A DNA stretch of 64,000 nucleotides from Actinophytocola xinjiangensis (GTDB taxonomy: Bacteria > Actinomycetota > Actinomycetes > Mycobacteriales > Pseudonocardiaceae): assembly GCF_001921215.1 (NCBI RefSeq), contig NZ_MSIF01000001.1, forward strand, positions 868,001 through 932,000, in the 5' to 3' direction. Positions 13,423-22,079 of this stretch are shown here, one piece after another. The position numbers and the translations under genes are program-made. Below the pieces are notes generated by a model. That model saw nothing but the letters and a program-made list of their open reading frames with translations. It did no database searches and was not told the origin of the DNA. Every line of letters starts with the position of its first letter. Within the stretch, counting starts at the first letter, position 1.

Positions 13423-13752
13423 GTGGACGGAAGTCTCGATCTTCGAGGCGAATCGATCAGCCAGTCGGGGGGAGCGCTCACCGGGTCGGCGCAGGGGATG
13501 GCCGGGGATCTCTCGGCGTTCACCAGCTCGCTGTCCGGGTACGGCAATCCGTTCGGCGACGACGACCTCGGGTCGGTCATGCAGATGATCTACTCGGCGG
13601 TGTCCGAGGCCGCGATGGAGTGCTTCGACGGCAACACCGCCGAGCTGGGCGTGGCCGGCGGGCAGTTGGTCGAGATGGGCTCGGAGTACCTGAACACCGA
13701 GCAGACCAACGAGGCGGAGTTCACCACCCTGCGGGGCGAGGTCGGCGGATGA
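13423..13752 (+). CDS. Small ESX/WXG-like helical protein
   Basis: A 109-residue acidic protein with no signal peptide. It is predicted to be largely helical, has a Gly/Ser-rich stretch near residues 14-45 and contains no Trp-x-Gly motif. Size, position between a YbaB-like gene and a WXG-type membrane-associated protein, and overlap with the next gene (ATGA) suggest a type VII secretion-type partner or chaperone. AGGGGAGCA precedes the GTG start. No specific function can be assigned. Confidence 0.75.
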   Translation: MDGSLDLRGESISQSGGALTGSAQGMAGDLSAFTSSLSGYGNPFGDDDLGSVMQMIYSAVSEAAMECFDGNTAELGVAGGQLVEMGSEYLNTEQTNEAEFTTLRGEVGG

Positions 13753-14249
13753 CGACCGGACTGATGCTGCCCCCGGAGCTCGGCGGGCTGCTCAACACCC
13801 TGGGGTTCAGCTGGCCCCAGGGCGACGAGGGCAAGATCTTCGACCTGGCGGGGGAGTGGATCGCCTTCGGTGGCCAGCTGTCCTCGTCGGTCGACGACGC
13901 GCACAGCCAGGCCAACGCGGTGTGGACGAACAACATGGCCGAGGCCGTCGACCGGTTCCGGGAGTACTGGAACGGCCCCGACGCGCCCCGGTCCAACCTG
14001 GCCGACGGTGCCACGGCGGCCACGATGGTCGGCGCGGGTCTGTACGTGTGCGCCGGGGTGCTGCTGGCCCTGAAGGTCGCGGTGATCGCCCAGCTCGTGG
14101 CGTTGGCGATCCAGATCGCCCAGGCCATCGCGACCGCGGCGGTCACCTTCGGTGCCTCGCTCGCCCAGATCCCGATCTTCCGGCAGATCACCAAGACGCT
14201 GCTGGACATGGCGCTGGACGTCGCCATCAACGCCCTGCTCAATGTCTAG
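13749..14249 (+). CDS. WXG100-like / CpnT-N-terminal-like protein with hydrophobic segment
   Basis: A 166-residue protein. The N-terminal half resembles the WXG-type helical domain that begins many actinobacterial polymorphic toxins, with LNTLGFSWPQGDE and a later FREYWNG segment. A long hydrophobic stretch of about 60 residues (about 92-150) follows and would insert in, or pack at, a membrane. It overlaps the upstream TGA and the downstream ATG, so the locus is translated as a unit. It is probably the trafficking half of a split toxin whose effector domain is encoded by the next gene. Confidence 0.78.
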   Translation: MTTGLMLPPELGGLLNTLGFSWPQGDEGKIFDLAGEWIAFGGQLSSSVDDAHSQANAVWTNNMAEAVDRFREYWNGPDAPRSNLADGATAATMVGAGLYVCAGVLLALKVAVIAQLVALAIQIAQAIATAAVTFGASLAQIPIFRQITKTLLDMALDVAINALLNV

Positions 14250-14931
14250 GCGCAGTGGCGGTGGTGGGGCGGGCGGCCGGTCGGCCGGACTGTTCCAGCC
14301 CATTCTGCGGTGGCTGCGCGGACCGTCGCGCACGGGCGGGCGCCCCGGCCCGTCGGCGCCGCACCGCCCGGCGGTCCCACCGAGACCGACCCGGCACCCC
14401 TCGGCACCCCCGCCGCACACCACGCCCCGGTACGGTAATCACCGGCCGATGCTGGACCGCTACCGCCACGAGACCGACCCCAACCACCCCGCGAACCCGT
14501 TTCCCGGGCGGTCGGTCACCCGGCTCACCCCGGAGCAGCGCGAGGCCCACCGGGTGTTCTTCGACAGCAACGGCGACTTACGCCGGGCGCGCGACGGTTC
14601 GCTCTACGACACCCAGTCCGGCACGTCCGCGTGGGGCGGCGGGCGCGCGATCTTCGTCATGGACGGCAATGGGAACATCTACGCGTCCAACCATCACGCG
14701 CCCGGTCAGTTCCACCACTCCTCGCTCGCCGGTGGCCATCCGGTCGCGTCGGCGGGCGAGCTGTCGGTGCGCAACGGCCGGGTGGAGTTCGCCACCGCCG
14801 CGAGCGGCCACTACCAGCCGCAGCCGGCGCAGATGGCCAACCTGGCCGGAGAGTTCGCCCGCAACGGTGTCCGACCGCCCATCTGGGACTTCCGGGGGCC
14901 GGTGCCCGGCGGTCGTCCCCTGTTCGCCTGA
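14242..14931 (+). CDS. Putative polymorphic-toxin effector with plant IQM-like C-terminal domain
   Basis: A 229-residue protein. Residues 1-75 are basic and rich in Pro/Gly, a typical linker. The C-terminal region has AIFVMDGNGNIYAS (136-149), FHHSSLAGGHPVASAGEL (157-174) and SGHYQPQPAQM (188-198). This order closely resembles the conserved core of plant IQM calmodulin-binding proteins (HSSFLAGG, AAGRL, SGHYxP), as I recall it, and of C-terminal modules in bacterial polymorphic toxins. Catalytic activity is unknown. It overlaps the WXG-like gene by eight bases and precedes a small gene that would fit an immunity protein. Confidence 0.75.
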   Translation: MSRRSGGGGAGGRSAGLFQPILRWLRGPSRTGGRPGPSAPHRPAVPPRPTRHPSAPPPHTTPRYGNHRPMLDRYRHETDPNHPANPFPGRSVTRLTPEQREAHRVFFDSNGDLRRARDGSLYDTQSGTSAWGGGRAIFVMDGNGNIYASNHHAPGQFHHSSLAGGHPVASAGELSVRNGRVEFATAASGHYQPQPAQMANLAGEFARNGVRPPIWDFRGPVPGGRPLFA

Positions 14932-14952
14932 CCAGTCCATTGTGGAGAGACC

Positions 14953-15234
14953 ATGACCATCGAACACCGAGCCGAGCTCAACTCCGTCATCTACGGCCTG
15001 TTCCGTGCCCCGAGCCTCGAACGCGAGGTGGCGGCGAGCATGGTCGAGGCGATGATCGCCAGGGAGTACTTCCTGGACGGACCGCAGGCGTACTCCCAGG
15101 CCATCGCCCAGGCCCTCAACCAGGCCGACCCGGTGACCGCCGACCTCCAGCCCCCGTACAACGAGGCCGATGTCCGCGCCTTCCTCGCGCTCGTCCACGA
15201 GGAGTTGGAGAAGACCAGGCCCTGGGCACCCTGA
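14953..15234 (+). CDS. Small acidic protein, candidate immunity protein
   Basis: A 93-residue, mostly helical and acidic protein with no signal peptide and no motif I recognise. It begins 21 bases after the putative toxin gene, with a GGAGA-type SD before the ATG, and ends the operon. Position directly downstream of a polymorphic-toxin-like gene is the only evidence for an immunity role. Confidence 0.65.
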   Translation: MTIEHRAELNSVIYGLFRAPSLEREVAASMVEAMIAREYFLDGPQAYSQAIAQALNQADPVTADLQPPYNEADVRAFLALVHEELEKTRPWAP

Positions 15235-18196: not shown

Positions 18197-18340
18197 CTCG
18201 ACCGAAGAGGCCGCTGCTTCCCCTGTGGTGAACGGCCGCCCACGGATTCCCTGACTGCCGTCAGATGTACGTCCCCTTCACGTCCCATCCACGCGCGGGC
18301 GGAACCCTACGTCGCGCCAACCTGGATGGAACGGAGCACA

Positions 18341-18925
18341 GTGAGAGTTTTCCTGAACTACCGAACCGACGACGAGGGGAGTACGGCGCTCGCGGTGTCC
18401 CGGTACCTGTGCGAACGGATCGGTGAACCCAACGTCTTCCTCGACAAGCGGTCCATCGACCCGGGGACGCTGTTCGACGACGCGATCCTGCGCAACCTCT
18501 GGCGCAGCGACGTGTTGGTGGCGATCATGGGTCGCGACTGGCTCGGGTTCCCCGGTCGTGCCGGCGGTCGTGCCATCGACGACCCTGAGGACTGGGTCCG
18601 CCGCGAACTGGTCGAGGCGCTGACCCACCAGGTCCGGATCGTGCCGTTCCTGGTCGGGGGCGCACCCCGGCTGGTCAGTGACGACCTGCCGCCCGAACTC
18701 GTCGATCTGGTCCGGTACCAGGACGTGCGGTTCGAACTCCGCACCCCGGAGGCGGCCTTCGCCCGCCTCGACCGGATCCTCGGCCTGCCCGACGCTGACG
18801 AGCCGGCTCGCGGCCGTGGCCGGTCCGGCGGCATCGGGTCGGTACGCGGCAACCGCAACATCTCCATCACCGACCCGCGCGGAGCGGTGACCATCGGAGA
18901 TCCGTTCCCCAGGAACGAGACATGA
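18341..18925 (+). CDS. TIR-domain protein with C-terminal glycine-rich motif
   Basis: A 194-residue cytoplasmic protein. Residues 1-150 form a TIR domain: VRVFLNYRTDD as beta-A/box 1, NVFLDKRSIDPGTLF as the BB-loop region, RSDVLVAIMGRDW and DPEDWVRREL, where Glu89 is the expected catalytic Glu of NADase-type TIRs. A flexible linker leads to a C-terminal motif at residues 162-185 (SGGIGxVxG, then NISITDPxGxVxI). The same motif recurs at the N-terminus of the next protein. GGAG lies four bases before the GTG start; ATG 18326 is an alternative. The ATGA overlap with the partner gene implies fixed stoichiometry. An NAD-consuming immune effector is the most likely role. Confidence 0.85.
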   Translation: MRVFLNYRTDDEGSTALAVSRYLCERIGEPNVFLDKRSIDPGTLFDDAILRNLWRSDVLVAIMGRDWLGFPGRAGGRAIDDPEDWVRRELVEALTHQVRIVPFLVGGAPRLVSDDLPPELVDLVRYQDVRFELRTPEAAFARLDRILGLPDADEPARGRGRSGGIGSVRGNRNISITDPRGAVTIGDPFPRNET

Positions 18926-20985
18926 GCGGAACCGAGATCGTGGAGGCGCGGGTCCACGAGGACGACTGGATCGAGGACGGGCCCGCCGACGGTCAGTCGG
19001 GCGGGATCGGGGAGGTGTGGGGAGACCACAACATCAGCATCACCGATCCCTCGGGCGGAGTCTCGATCATCGAACGGGTGCAGTTCTACGTCCAGTCCAG
19101 CACCGCGGAGCCGGGAACTGGCCGTTCGCGGCGGCTCGTGCCCGAGGACATCCTCACCGACCTCACCGCGCGCTTCGTCGTCACACCCGGCTACGGGGAC
19201 CTGGTCCGACGTCTTCGCGAGCCCGCGACGGTCGTCATCTCCGGGGAGCCCGGCTCCGGCCGGCACGCCGCCGCGCTGATGGTGTTGAAGGAGTCCGGCA
19301 CCGGAGCGACCCGGTTCCGGGAACTGCCCGACGACGGCGACGTCGATGAGCCGGTCTTCGACGAGGACGCCATCGAGTCGGGCGAACGACTGCTCCTCGA
19401 TCTGTCCTCGGTGACGAATCCGCTTCCCGGCAAGGTGCTCGCCACCATCCGCTCCTACCGGGCGAGGGTCGCCGAGCGGCAGGCCTACCTCGCGATCGTC
19501 CTGGCCCCGGAGCTGCACCACGTCGGCGCCGAGCTGGGCACCGAGGTGGTGCACATCAGCAGACCGAACGGCAGGGAGGTCTTCCTCCGCCACCTGCGAG
19601 CCTCCGGCATCGAGGTCGATGAGCACGAGTTGCGGGACGAGAAGCTCACCGGGCACCTCACCCAGGACCCGATGCGCCACGTCGCCGCACTCGCCGGGCG
19701 GGTGCGGTCGGCCCGCCTGGCGGCGGGCGGAGCTGGTGGGTTGCCGGCGTGGCTCGCCGCCGCGCTGGCGCCCGACACCCAACGCGACGCGGCCGCGCGG
19801 TTCGTGAAGGACAATCCGGACGGCCGGGTACGGGCGTTGCTGCTCGCCGCCGCGCTGTTCGAGGACGCGGCCCCTGAGGCCGTGGCGTTCGCCGCGACGG
19901 CGCTGCTCGAGGTCGTCGGGTACCCGGCCCACGACGAGCACCGGCTCAACCTGCCCGACCTCGCGGAGGCTCTCGCCGGGGTGGACGCGTCGGTCGGAGA
20001 CGGCCGGGTGCGGTTCCGGTCGCTGGGCTTCGGTGACGCTGTGCGGACACACTTCTGGGGCATGTTCCCGGATCTGCGCATCGACCTGCGTCGGTGGCTC
20101 GACCGGTGCGTGCAGCCGAGGTGGTTGTCGGCCGACGCCCGGACGGCCGCGTTCTCGCGTTACACGGACCAGTCCCTGTGGCTCGGTCACCCGGAGGACG
20201 TGTGCGCGCTGGTCGAGCTGCAGGCCCGCCGCTCTCCGCTGGGGCTGGACCAGCGGCTCGACGCGGCCGGTGCGGCCCTCACCCGAGGACTGCTGAGCGA
20301 GCACGGCTCGTGGTTTCGACGCCGGATCTACCACTGGGCGCTCGATCGCGGCCTGTGGCCGAGTTTGGCGAGACTGCTCGTCGGCCTCTGTGTCGGGGTG
20401 ATCGCACCGGGCCAGCCGCAGCAGGCGTTGGTGCGACTGCGGCACTTCACGCGCCATCAGCAGCCCGCCGTCGTCGCGGAGGCACGTGCGGCGCTGACCG
20501 AGCTCGCCGCCAACGGCCTGTTCGCCCGTCACCTCCTTGCCCGAATCCACGACGACCTGACCGGCGACCGGCCGACGGAGGTCGACTACGACCTGTTCAC
20601 CGACATCGCCGACCCCGTCCGGCTGTCAGCGGGTGCTGGCAGGTTTCCGCACGTGGCTGACCCGGCCGTCGCCACCATGCTGGCCGCCGGCTGGGCCGCC
20701 GTGCTGTCGGACCGGCCCTACGACCAGGTCGCCGTCGCGGTCGGCCGGTGGCTCGACGCCCACGCCGAGCAACCTCACCGCGACGCACTGCTGGCCGTCC
20801 TCGCGGCTGCCGCCCGGAAGAACACCCGGGCGCGGGCCGTGCTCTACGCGGTGTCCCGGGACTGGATCGTGTCGTCACCGCCGGACAAGCGCCGCGACCG
20901 GCTGCCCACCGCGGCCCTCCTGCGGCAGATGTGCACGCGGGTCTCCACCCCACCGACCAGAGCGACGCAGGGAGTCACCCAGTGA
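18922..20985 (+). CDS. Large STAND-like protein sharing the TIR protein's motif
   Basis: A 687-residue protein, not assignable to a named family. Residues 26-49 hold SGGIGEVWG then NISITDPSGGVSI, matching the TIR protein's C-terminus at 17 of 24 positions. A P-loop-like fold follows: GEPGSGRH at 108-115 is a degenerate Walker A (Lys to Arg, Ser/Thr to His), and RLLLDL ending at Asp160 resembles Walker B. Residues from about 260 on are Ala/Leu/Arg-rich and helical, consistent with HEAT/ARM or TPR-like sensing repeats. It overlaps both neighbours by single stop/start junctions. The likely role is sensor or scaffold for the TIR effector (inference). Confidence 0.78.
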   Translation: MSGTEIVEARVHEDDWIEDGPADGQSGGIGEVWGDHNISITDPSGGVSIIERVQFYVQSSTAEPGTGRSRRLVPEDILTDLTARFVVTPGYGDLVRRLREPATVVISGEPGSGRHAAALMVLKESGTGATRFRELPDDGDVDEPVFDEDAIESGERLLLDLSSVTNPLPGKVLATIRSYRARVAERQAYLAIVLAPELHHVGAELGTEVVHISRPNGREVFLRHLRASGIEVDEHELRDEKLTGHLTQDPMRHVAALAGRVRSARLAAGGAGGLPAWLAAALAPDTQRDAAARFVKDNPDGRVRALLLAAALFEDAAPEAVAFAATALLEVVGYPAHDEHRLNLPDLAEALAGVDASVGDGRVRFRSLGFGDAVRTHFWGMFPDLRIDLRRWLDRCVQPRWLSADARTAAFSRYTDQSLWLGHPEDVCALVELQARRSPLGLDQRLDAAGAALTRGLLSEHGSWFRRRIYHWALDRGLWPSLARLLVGLCVGVIAPGQPQQALVRLRHFTRHQQPAVVAEARAALTELAANGLFARHLLARIHDDLTGDRPTEVDYDLFTDIADPVRLSAGAGRFPHVADPAVATMLAAGWAAVLSDRPYDQVAVAVGRWLDAHAEQPHRDALLAVLAAAARKNTRARAVLYAVSRDWIVSSPPDKRRDRLPTAALLRQMCTRVSTPPTRATQGVTQ

Positions 20986-22079
20986 TGGTGAGCGACAAGG
21001 CCTACCTGACCGTCACCGCCGTGGTGTCGGTCCTCGTCCTCATGCTGGCGTCTCTCACGGGCGTGGCGTGGTGGCTGTCCGTACCGTTCTGCCTGTTGAT
21101 CATGGTTGGCGGCCTGCTCGCGAAACGCCACGTCGAGAACAAGCGGGTGGTGGCACCTGCGCCGCCTTCGATGTCCTACCAGCCGCCGCCCCCGCCGGCG
21201 ACCGTGTCCGTCCAGGGAATCGCGTTGCCGAGTGCGCACCCCGACTACCGATTCCTGTTGCACGGCACCATTGTGTGGCGACTTCCCGGCCCGCACGCGA
21301 GCCCGCACCCGCGTCCGGAACAACTCGCGATCGATGCGCTTCGGGAACGGGCGGCGCGGTTCACCGAGGGCGAGTCGCCGGCCGACGTCGACCTGCTGGC
21401 GACCCGCCTGGGAACCGAGCTGTCCTTCCCTCGGCCGGACCGGACCGGAACGCTCGAGGTCTGGGCGCAGGACACGATCCTGGCGATCCCGGACGATGAC
21501 CGCGTCCGGCTGAACAAGATCGCCGCGGTCCGCAAGAACGAGGAGGTCTGGGACCATGAGCGGGCGTATGAACGGAACAAGCGCGCCTACCTGCGCGACG
21601 ACGTTCTCACGACGACGAGCAGTGCGGTCGTGTGGTGGCTGGCGCAGGACACCACGCGTGTCAGCGACACGGTCAGCCTGATCGGCACCCTCGCCCAGTT
21701 GGTGGCCGCTGCCCAGAACCGCGAGGTCGAACCGCTGTTCCAGTCGTTCGTTCGCGACCTGTCCGAGGCTGGGGAGATCGTCGAGCGCGGCGCGGACACC
21801 GAACCGGATCCGGACCTCGACGCACTGGACCGGTTGATGGCCAACCTCGTGCCGGACGATTCCGGACCCGAGCAGGCCGACCTGGCCGACCGACTCGCGG
21901 GAATCGCCGAGGAGGCGGGGGCCACCGACCTCGCCAGCGTGATCCGCGAACGGTTCGGTGCGCCCGTCTTCACCGAGCAGGACTCGTGGTTCGCCGGGTT
22001 GGCGGCCCAACCGGGTGCGCCGGGTCCCCAGGACTCGTCCCCTGGCACGAACGGAACGTCCCCACCCGCCGCTGGATAG
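20985..22079 (+). CDS. Two-TM membrane protein of the TIR operon
   Basis: A 364-residue protein of unknown family. Two transmembrane helices lie at the N-terminus (about residues 6-28 and 31-46), followed by a Pro-rich linker (PPPPP near 65) and a cytoplasmic domain. That domain has a charged helical core around NKIAAVRKNEEVWDHERA and a VVWWLAQD segment, and the C-terminal tail is acidic. The ATG shares its A with the previous stop codon (TGATG). Membrane anchoring and tight coupling suggest it localises the TIR/STAND-like complex or acts as a membrane effector, but no motif proves this. Confidence 0.75.
   Translation: MVSDKAYLTVTAVVSVLVLMLASLTGVAWWLSVPFCLLIMVGGLLAKRHVENKRVVAPAPPSMSYQPPPPPATVSVQGIALPSAHPDYRFLLHGTIVWRLPGPHASPHPRPEQLAIDALRERAARFTEGESPADVDLLATRLGTELSFPRPDRTGTLEVWAQDTILAIPDDDRVRLNKIAAVRKNEEVWDHERAYERNKRAYLRDDVLTTTSSAVVWWLAQDTTRVSDTVSLIGTLAQLVAAAQNREVEPLFQSFVRDLSEAGEIVERGADTEPDPDLDALDRLMANLVPDDSGPEQADLADRLAGIAEEAGATDLASVIRERFGAPVFTEQDSWFAGLAAQPGAPGPQDSSPGTNGTSPPAAG

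What the first reader, a model, noticed from the sequence alone, without database searches (positions are those of the whole stretch)
18824..19071. Same glycine-rich motif at the TIR C-terminus and the partner N-terminus: possible amyloid-type signalling pair
Residues 162-185 of the TIR protein and 26-49 of its partner both read SGGIGxVxG followed by xx and NISITDPxGxVxI; I count 17 identical positions of 24. The two full proteins are otherwise unrelated. Known precedent: fungal HET-S/NWD2 and bacterial BASS motifs, where an effector's C-terminal short motif matches the N-terminus of an adjacent NLR and templates beta-arch amyloid assembly. G/N-rich, alternating hydrophobic I/V residues fit such a fold. 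This one may be a new motif class.
Basis: partly seen in the sequence, partly recalled or inferred. Interest (0 to 1): 0.85.

Follow-up and report, generated by a model that had tools for sequence, protein, structure and literature searches.

The report
Matched signalling tags on neighbouring proteins
Two neighbouring genes of an actinobacterium, a TIR protein and a switch-like NTPase, carry the same short protein tag, and most related gene pairs examined carry other tags that again match within the pair, which suggests that the partners find each other by like-with-like assembly.

Summary
Residues 167-190 of the TIR protein (162-185 from the GTG start at 18341) and 26-49 of the partner share 17 of 24 residues; none of 20,000 shuffles reaches the score. 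It is not a one-off. In 53 distinct effector/NTPase pairs, 49 with overlapping genes, the effector's C-terminal tail resembles the N-terminus of its own NTPase far more than that of other NTPases (mean 76 against 33; 0 of 100,000 permutations). The motif differs between loci and, in most pairs, matches within the locus. Effectors are TIR proteins (11) or cyclase-like proteins (42; class III cyclase tentative). A Crp-type gene precedes 37 of 42 cyclase-like genes and 0 of 11 TIR genes.

Best reading: an NLR-type amyloid-signalling pair of the BASS/HET-S kind, with a motif in no Pfam family and an unusual probable second-messenger branch. Like-with-like coupling is well supported; the amyloid (beta-arch) state is inferred. 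The BASS1-10 profiles were not available, no structure model could be run, and a review already mentions BASS motifs with TIR domains: a new variant of a known kind.

The parts
18326..18925 (+). TIR effector gene (199 aa; alternative GTG start 18341, 194 aa)
   Evidence: PF13676 TIR_2 E=3.6e-9; best solved relatives are SARM1 TIR domains, E=2.5e-4
18605..18607 (+). Glu94 of the TIR domain, aligned with the Glu of SARM1's DWVHKE
   Evidence: alignment; Glu at this column in 12 of 12 TIR proteins aligned. That it is SARM1's catalytic Glu is recalled
18824..18895 (+). Effector-side motif SGGIGSVRGNRNISITDPRGAVTI
   Evidence: 17 of 24 identical to the partner motif; 23 and 22 of 24 kept in two same-genus relatives, linker before it 6 and 3 of 11
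18922..18925 (+). ATGA overlap of the two genes
   Evidence: sequence; by my start-codon rule a 4-base overlap occurs in 39 of 53 pairs and some overlap in 49 of 53
18922..20985 (+). STAND-like NTPase (687 aa), presumed sensor/switch
   Evidence: nSTAND3 4.7e-4, below cut-off, over 40 residues; nSTAND3 at E<=0.1 in 16 of 26 family members, best 5.3e-6; a PDB profile search found no STAND or NLR chain
18997..19068 (+). NTPase-side motif SGGIGEVWGDHNISITDPSGGVSI
19243..19266 (+). P-loop-like GEPGSGRH with Arg at the Walker A Lys position
   Evidence: numbering; Arg here in 39 of 51 family members, Lys in 2
19390..19407 (+). Walker B-like LLLDLS
   Evidence: Asp in 47 of 51 family members
20985..22079 (+). 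Third gene (364 aa), hydrophobic N-terminus, probable membrane protein
   Evidence: starts on the last base of the NTPase stop codon; homologue adjacent to the NTPase in 41 of 53 pairs, within 2 kb in 5, elsewhere in 1, none found in 6; strongest 19-residue hydrophobic stretch starts at residue 10; no Pfam hit

Best explanation
The two genes are an effector/receptor pair coupled by a like-with-like motif. The STAND-like NTPase senses an unknown trigger and clusters; its N-terminal motif then becomes ordered, recruits the same motif on the tail of the TIR protein and templates it. The gathered TIR domains become active and consume NAD+ or make a nucleotide signal from it, probably in phage defence or cell death. 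In most relatives the same wiring leads to a cyclase-like enzyme that probably signals to a Crp-type regulator. Shown here: the motif pair, its recurrence, its within-locus matching, the operon, the exchange of effectors. Inferred: physical binding, the beta-arch/amyloid state, enzyme activities and biological role.
For: Within-locus matching in 53 pairs, 0 of 100,000 permutations; in 39 representatives under 60% NTPase core identity 74.7 against 33.0, 0 of 100,000, and 29 of 39 beat all 300 shuffles. In two genomes with two systems each, cognate scores exceed cross scores: 43 and 77 against 27 and 25; 129 and 50 against 24 and 29. The motif profile gave 23 matches at E<=1.7e-7 in 150 genomes, all in such pairs, but 19 of them are the sequences it was built from and the other 4 close relatives. 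In a draw of 396 phylum genomes the motif profile (E<=0.001, at most 20 candidates scored per genome) and the NTPase query (E<=1e-10, 2 candidates per genome) each found the window's genome and the same one other, G252, not used in the profile; its TIR tail and NTPase N-terminus match (score 74; 5,000 shuffles at most 65). Effector type changes at least 4 times on the NTPase tree, 2 of them forced by starred branches. The window motifs are not a recent DNA copy: same codon at 8 of 18 identical residues, 9.9 expected.
Against: No structure, binding or aggregation evidence. L051, L055, L057 (NTPase start miscalled), L064 and L099 show no convincing match and L060/L061 a weak one. Own tail against own N-terminus exceeds the best tail-to-tail score in only 9 of 39: tails hold further motifs without a partner on the NTPase. 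Codon identity over 36 pairs is above expectation (431 of 640 against 350), so DNA copying helps keep some pairs alike. In the genus the NTPase-side motif (17 of 24 twice) is no better conserved than the core (454 and 356 of 580). STAND membership rests on short, mostly weak Pfam hits; the PDB profile search gave no STAND or NLR chain, and the P-loop is degenerate.
Confidence: 0.62

Rival explanations
1. The matched segments dock by like-with-like beta pairing or a small domain swap (a finite complex), not by an amyloid-type polymer. The logic of coupling is the same.
For: Within-locus matching requires only like-with-like recognition; no assembly evidence exists.
Against: Short, G/N-rich, Leu-poor tails, some with several motifs in a row, look more like published signalling motifs than a folded domain; published BASS3 and sigma peptides aggregate. 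This is an argument by analogy.
Confidence: 0.25
2. The two motifs are remnants of a duplication at the gene junction, kept alike by gene conversion, without a role in signalling.
For: Excess of shared codons over 36 pairs (431 against 350 of 640), for example L050, L042, L086.
Against: The window pair has no excess (8 of 18 against 9.9), nor have L052, L087 and L104. The TIR motif stays 22-23 of 24 identical while its linker keeps 3-6 of 11. Matching is found with both effector types, which were exchanged on the NTPase tree.
Confidence: 0.06
3. Low-complexity composition: any two G/N-rich tails would align like this.
For: The tails as a set are G/N-rich.
Against: Mismatched pairs from the same set score 33, matched ones 76; 29 of 39 pairs beat all 300 composition-preserving shuffles.
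Confidence: 0.02
4. The motif is an effector-associated domain (EAD) or death-like adaptor in the sense of Kaur, Burroughs, Aravind and colleagues.
For: Same organisation: like-with-like adaptors shared by effector and core component (passages).
Against: 9 of their 12 EADs are alpha-helical; this is a 24-residue Gly-rich segment.
Confidence: 0.05

Closest known systems
BASS (bacterial amyloid signalling sequence) NLR/effector pairs, Dyrka et al. 2020 (not held; known here from passages and sections of PMC7889193, PMC8086366, PMC12261475)
   Same: Adjacent or overlapping genes; motif of about 25 residues at effector C-terminus and NLR N-terminus; actinobacteria; diverse motif families; TIR partners mentioned as a minority
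   Different: Effectors here are TIR or cyclase-like, not Bell; the NTPase is weakly nSTAND3-like with Arg at the Walker A Lys; membership in BASS1-10 or 'other BASS' could not be tested
Fungal HET-S/NWD2, sigma and PP motifs
   Same: Receptor N-terminus and effector C-terminus share one motif
   Different: Different sequence and effector; Pfam NACHT_sigma touches 2 of 32 cyclase-like effectors (best E 0.0092) and 1 of 35 tails and N-termini (0.12), which is noise level
RHIM / BASS3
   Same: A Gly/Val/Gln element of the kind GxVxGxVVQ occurs in 8 of 53 effector tails by a strict pattern and in 11 of 53 by a looser one
   Different: The window motif has no Gln; the strict pattern is in 0 of 53 NTPase N-termini, the looser one in 2 (L081, L086)
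EAD-coupled conflict systems with cNMP cyclase, TIR and STAND modules (PMC7159879, PMC8195603, passages)
   Same: Similar cast of effectors and NTPases, coupling by like-with-like adaptors
   Different: EADs are small domains, mostly helical; here a 24-residue motif that differs from locus to locus
Thoeris TIR proteins (ThcB4, ThsB)
   Same: TIR domain resembles NCBIfam ThcB4 (3.9e-8) and PADLOC ThsB (6.6e-6)
   Different: Far below the NCBIfam cut-off (32.6 of 220 bits); the neighbouring NTPase hits no ThsA model

Membership tests
BASS-type amyloid signalling pair | Short motif shared by effector C-terminus and receptor N-terminus of adjacent genes | tested here: met
BASS-type amyloid signalling pair | Receptor is an NLR/STAND NTPase | tested here: inconclusive
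   nSTAND3 at E<=0.1 in 16 of 26 family members, best 5.3e-6; window protein below Pfam's cut-off; no STAND or NLR chain among 8 PDB hits up to E 1; Walker A Lys replaced by Arg in 39 of 51
BASS-type amyloid signalling pair | Effector carries a Bell domain (the usual, not the only, partner) | tested here: not met
   only TIR models hit; TIR partners are mentioned as rarer cases
BASS-type amyloid signalling pair | Match to a BASS1-10 profile | not testable with these tools
   Dyrka et al. 2020 not held
BASS-type amyloid signalling pair | Beta-arch / amyloid formation | not testable with these tools
   structure prediction failed and was switched off
RHIM / BASS3 | Gln-containing core | tested here: not met
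   no Gln within the 24 residues of either window motif
Fungal sigma motif | Match to Pfam NACHT_sigma | tested here: not met
   no hit for P0001 or P0002; noise-level hits in a few relatives
EAD | Small adaptor domain shared by effector and core component | tested here: inconclusive
   organisation fits, length and composition do not; no EAD profile compared
Class III nucleotidyl cyclase (effectors of 42 relatives) | Catalytic-domain homology with the two metal-binding Asp motifs | tested here: inconclusive
   hhalign with 17 PF00211-derived segments: probability 24%, E 8.4e-4; a first run with one miscut row gave 43%, E 2.5e-4, with VDxKDFS and TGDGY aligned to the cyclase motifs; TIR and NTPase controls 0.1-0.2%; all 3 PDB hits up to E 1 are cyclase Ma1120, best 0.14; no Pfam cyclase hit in 32 members

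The most novel reading that the evidence does not exclude
A modular, fast-changing 'address code' in actinobacteria: one STAND-like receptor family is wired by locus-specific self-matching amyloid-type motifs to exchangeable enzymes, either a TIR or a cyclase that reports to a Crp-type transcription factor, so that amyloid templating gates a second messenger and transcription and not only cell death.
Probability: 0.32. Interest if true: 0.85.

Novelty: new variant of a known kind. Interest (0 to 1): 0.66.

Why it matters
If right, it adds a receptor family, a motif group and a signalling branch (cyclase-like enzyme plus Crp) to bacterial amyloid signalling. It also offers dozens of natural cognate pairs in which specificity and cross-talk could be tested by exchanging about 25 residues. 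A review passage calls the outcome of this signalling in filamentous bacteria still to be explored.

Tried and rejected
Rejected: chance and low complexity; recent DNA duplication for the window pair; RHIM or sigma membership of the window motif.

No cyclase control loci among 7 genomes; a search of 41 genomes of the order gave them. Pfam on 35 tails and N-termini gave no motif family; hits to unrelated families were as good as NACHT_sigma. Weak own-genome motif hits on C8 and C14 (E 1.8 and 2.8) were not pursued. The promoter and terminator scan was uninformative. The PDB search with the NTPase profile gave 8 hits up to E 1, none a STAND or NLR protein.

Choices and rows dropped before counts: of 35 regions fetched, L066 had no match at 1e-3 and L063, L065 and L068 no recognisable upstream effector, leaving 31, whose effector ORFs I listed by hand. 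Of 32 cyclase-like loci, 5 repeated earlier loci, leaving 58 pooled pairs; 5 had no family NTPase downstream (L097, L105, L106, L107, L109), leaving 53. Only identical NTPases were removed, so near-copies remain (for example L039/L040 and L060/L061); the 39 representatives are the check on that. NTPase starts were set by rule (starts up to 40 bases before the effector stop were allowed), which favours overlaps. Two short rows were left out of the tree and the Walker count (51 rows). A third genome with two family hits (G061) was left out of the cross-talk comparison, as its second locus L068 had no effector.

Mended on re-check: one of the 18 cyclase control segments was miscut; without it hhalign falls from 43% to 24%. 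I lowered the probability of the novel case from 0.35 to 0.32 for that reason. The third gene was recounted for the 53 pairs.

Full report
What is there. The window holds a tight operon: a TIR protein (18326-18925), a 687-residue STAND-like NTPase (18922-20985, ATGA overlap) and a 364-residue protein with a hydrophobic N-terminus (20985-22079). The TIR domain is PF13676 (E 3.6e-9); the NTPase has a sub-threshold nSTAND3 hit. The two motifs lie at 18824-18895 and 18997-19068 and share 17 of 24 residues. The tail-to-N-terminus score of 91 is not reached by 20,000 shuffles (mean 24, maximum 61). The best local alignment of the whole proteins is this stretch.

Relatives. A search of 150 related genomes with the NTPase found it in 32 at E<=1e-5. 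I fetched 35 regions and could define an upstream effector in 31. A genome-contig scan with the cyclase-like effectors gave 32 named loci, mostly Pseudonocardiaceae (Streptoalloteichus, Saccharopolyspora, Amycolatopsis, Umezawaea, Actinokineospora, Kutzneria and others), with Kribbella, Frankia, Nocardiopsis and one MAG. After removing identical repeats and five loci without a family NTPase downstream, 53 pairs remain: 42 cyclase-like and 11 TIR effectors by profile. By my start-codon rule the genes overlap by 4 bases in 39 of 53 and overlap at all in 49 of 53.

Within-locus matching. Effector tails score 76.0 on average with their own NTPase N-terminus and 33.3 with others; none of 100,000 permutations reaches the observed mean. 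The own partner ranks first in 22 of 53 rows and in the top three in 37 of 53 rows and 42 of 53 columns; the best whole-protein local alignment lies at effector tail and NTPase N-terminus in 43 of 53. With one representative per cluster at 60% NTPase core identity (39 pairs) the means are 74.7 and 33.0, again 0 of 100,000; 29 of 39 beat all 300 shuffles. Examples: Umezawaea L082 TGGIERISGGVGNVF / GSGIGRISGGVDNVF; Kribbella L091 GGVGSIAGNVGSIVSDPTGP / GGAGDIGGNVGGVVTDPSAP; Allokutzneria L086 QGGDYVQHGDTTTNHNHGPTNTGSGNQ / QGGDYVQHGDTTTNHNHGPSNTGSGSQ. Against: L051, L055, L057 (NTPase start miscalled), L064 and L099 do not match convincingly and L060/L061 only weakly. Own-pair score exceeds the best tail-to-tail score in only 9 of 39, so tails hold additional motifs.

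Specificity and held-out test. A 29-column profile of 19 hand-picked motif copies gave 23 matches at E<=1.7e-7 in 150 genomes, all in these pairs; the next match is at 7.7e-4, also in such a pair. 19 of the 23 are the sequences it was built from and the other 4 (G017, one of G059, two of G077) are close relatives of them. In an even draw of 396 genomes of the phylum, with at most 20 candidates scored per genome, it found one place besides the window's own (G252, E 1.3e-4). It is the tail of a TIR protein whose downstream NTPase, overlapping by 4 bases, starts with a matching motif; a homologue of the third gene follows (3.7e-21). The NTPase query over a draw of the same size found the same single genome, with 2 candidates scored per genome. 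The pair scores 74 against at most 65 in 5,000 shuffles. In two genomes with two systems each, cognate scores exceed cross scores.

Selection or copying. In two same-genus relatives the TIR-side motif keeps 23 and 22 of 24 residues, the TIR domain 123 and 95 of 150, the linker 6 and 3 of 11, the end after the motif 5 and 2 of 9. The NTPase-side motif keeps 17 of 24 twice, about as much as the core (454 and 356 of 580). Identical residues use the same codon at 8 of 18 positions in the window pair against 9.9 expected; over 36 pairs 431 of 640 against 350. So the window pair is held alike at the protein level, while DNA copying has probably helped in some other loci.

Modules. The cyclase-like effectors have no Pfam cyclase hit. 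Their profile aligns with 17 PF00211-derived segments at hhalign probability 24%, E 8.4e-4; a first run that included one miscut row gave 43%, E 2.5e-4, with the VDxKDFS and TGDGY motifs aligned to the cyclase motifs, and unrelated controls 0.1-0.2%. The three PDB hits up to E 1 are all the cyclase Ma1120 (E 0.14-0.22). Cyclase identity is therefore likely but tentative. A Crp-type gene lies directly upstream on the same strand in 37 of 42 cyclase loci; in L050 and L058 the hit overlaps an effector ORF start that was probably called too early, and in L057, L100 and L103 the hit lies upstream on the other strand. No TIR locus of 11 has a Crp hit in its fetched region. One such Crp protein was scanned and has PF00027 and PF13545. 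An XRE-HTH-like gene matches upstream in 6 of 11 TIR loci and in L142, and in no cyclase locus. On the NTPase tree the effector type changes at least 4 times, 2 forced by starred branches (quick tree, 51 rows). The third gene is adjacent in 41 of 53 pairs (7 of 11 TIR, 34 of 42 cyclase), within 2 kb in 5, elsewhere in 1 and not found in 6. The Walker A Lys position is Arg in 39 of 51 NTPases and Lys in 2; the Walker B-like Asp is kept in 47 of 51. Pfam nSTAND3 hits 16 of 26 NTPases at E<=0.1, but none of 8 PDB hits of the NTPase profile is a STAND or NLR protein. The Glu that aligns with SARM1's DWVHKE is present in 12 of 12 TIR proteins.

Mechanism. The simplest account is like-with-like recruitment: NTPase clustering orders its motif, which recruits the same motif on the effector tail. 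Similar rather than complementary sequences, which change together within loci and are found with either enzyme, argue for stacking of like on like. Whether the stack is an amyloid beta-arch was not tested.

Known ground. Papers seen: PMC7889193 (passages), PMC8086366 (passages and sections 6 and 13), PMC12261475 (outline, section 3, part 1 of section 9), PMC9815663 (passages), PMC8195603 (passages), PMC7159879 (passages), PMC12881547 (passages). They describe NLR-linked amyloid motifs in bacteria, call ten BASS families a conservative estimate, and mention TIR and CHAT partners beside Bell. Eight searches of the open-licence library listed no paper whose title or abstract opening describes a motif-matched cyclase-Crp-STAND system; nothing else was searched.

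Verdict. New variant of a known kind.

Noticed in passing
cyclase-type loci among L035-L069 and L078-L109: A recurrent gene order Crp-type regulator / cyclase-like protein / STAND-like NTPase / probable membrane protein; the Crp gene goes with cyclase-like effectors and has no hit in TIR loci.
   Followed up: partly
window 19243-19266 and NTPase family: Walker A Lys replaced by Arg (GxxGxGRR) in 39 of 51 family members: a conserved degenerate P-loop.
   Followed up: partly
L038, L039, L040, L047, L060, L061, L142: TIR-type loci with an XRE-HTH protein (TPR-like repeats by eye only) upstream of the TIR gene; the window locus had no such hit.
   Followed up: no
L105, L106, L107, L109 (Nocardiopsis), L097 (Amycolatopsis): Cyclase-like proteins with G/N-rich tails but no family NTPase directly downstream; partners may lie elsewhere or be of another type.
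   Followed up: no
window 13620-15234: Possibly a polymorphic-toxin-like region: two overlapping ORFs in different frames followed by a small ORF; judged by eye only.
   Followed up: no
effector tails, e.g. L039, L042, L045: Several motifs in one tail: a RHIM-like GxVxGxVVQ element (8 of 53 tails), a TGxGxQ element (20 of 53 tails, 23 of 53 NTPase N-termini, 17 in both), besides GGIG-type motifs.
   Followed up: partly
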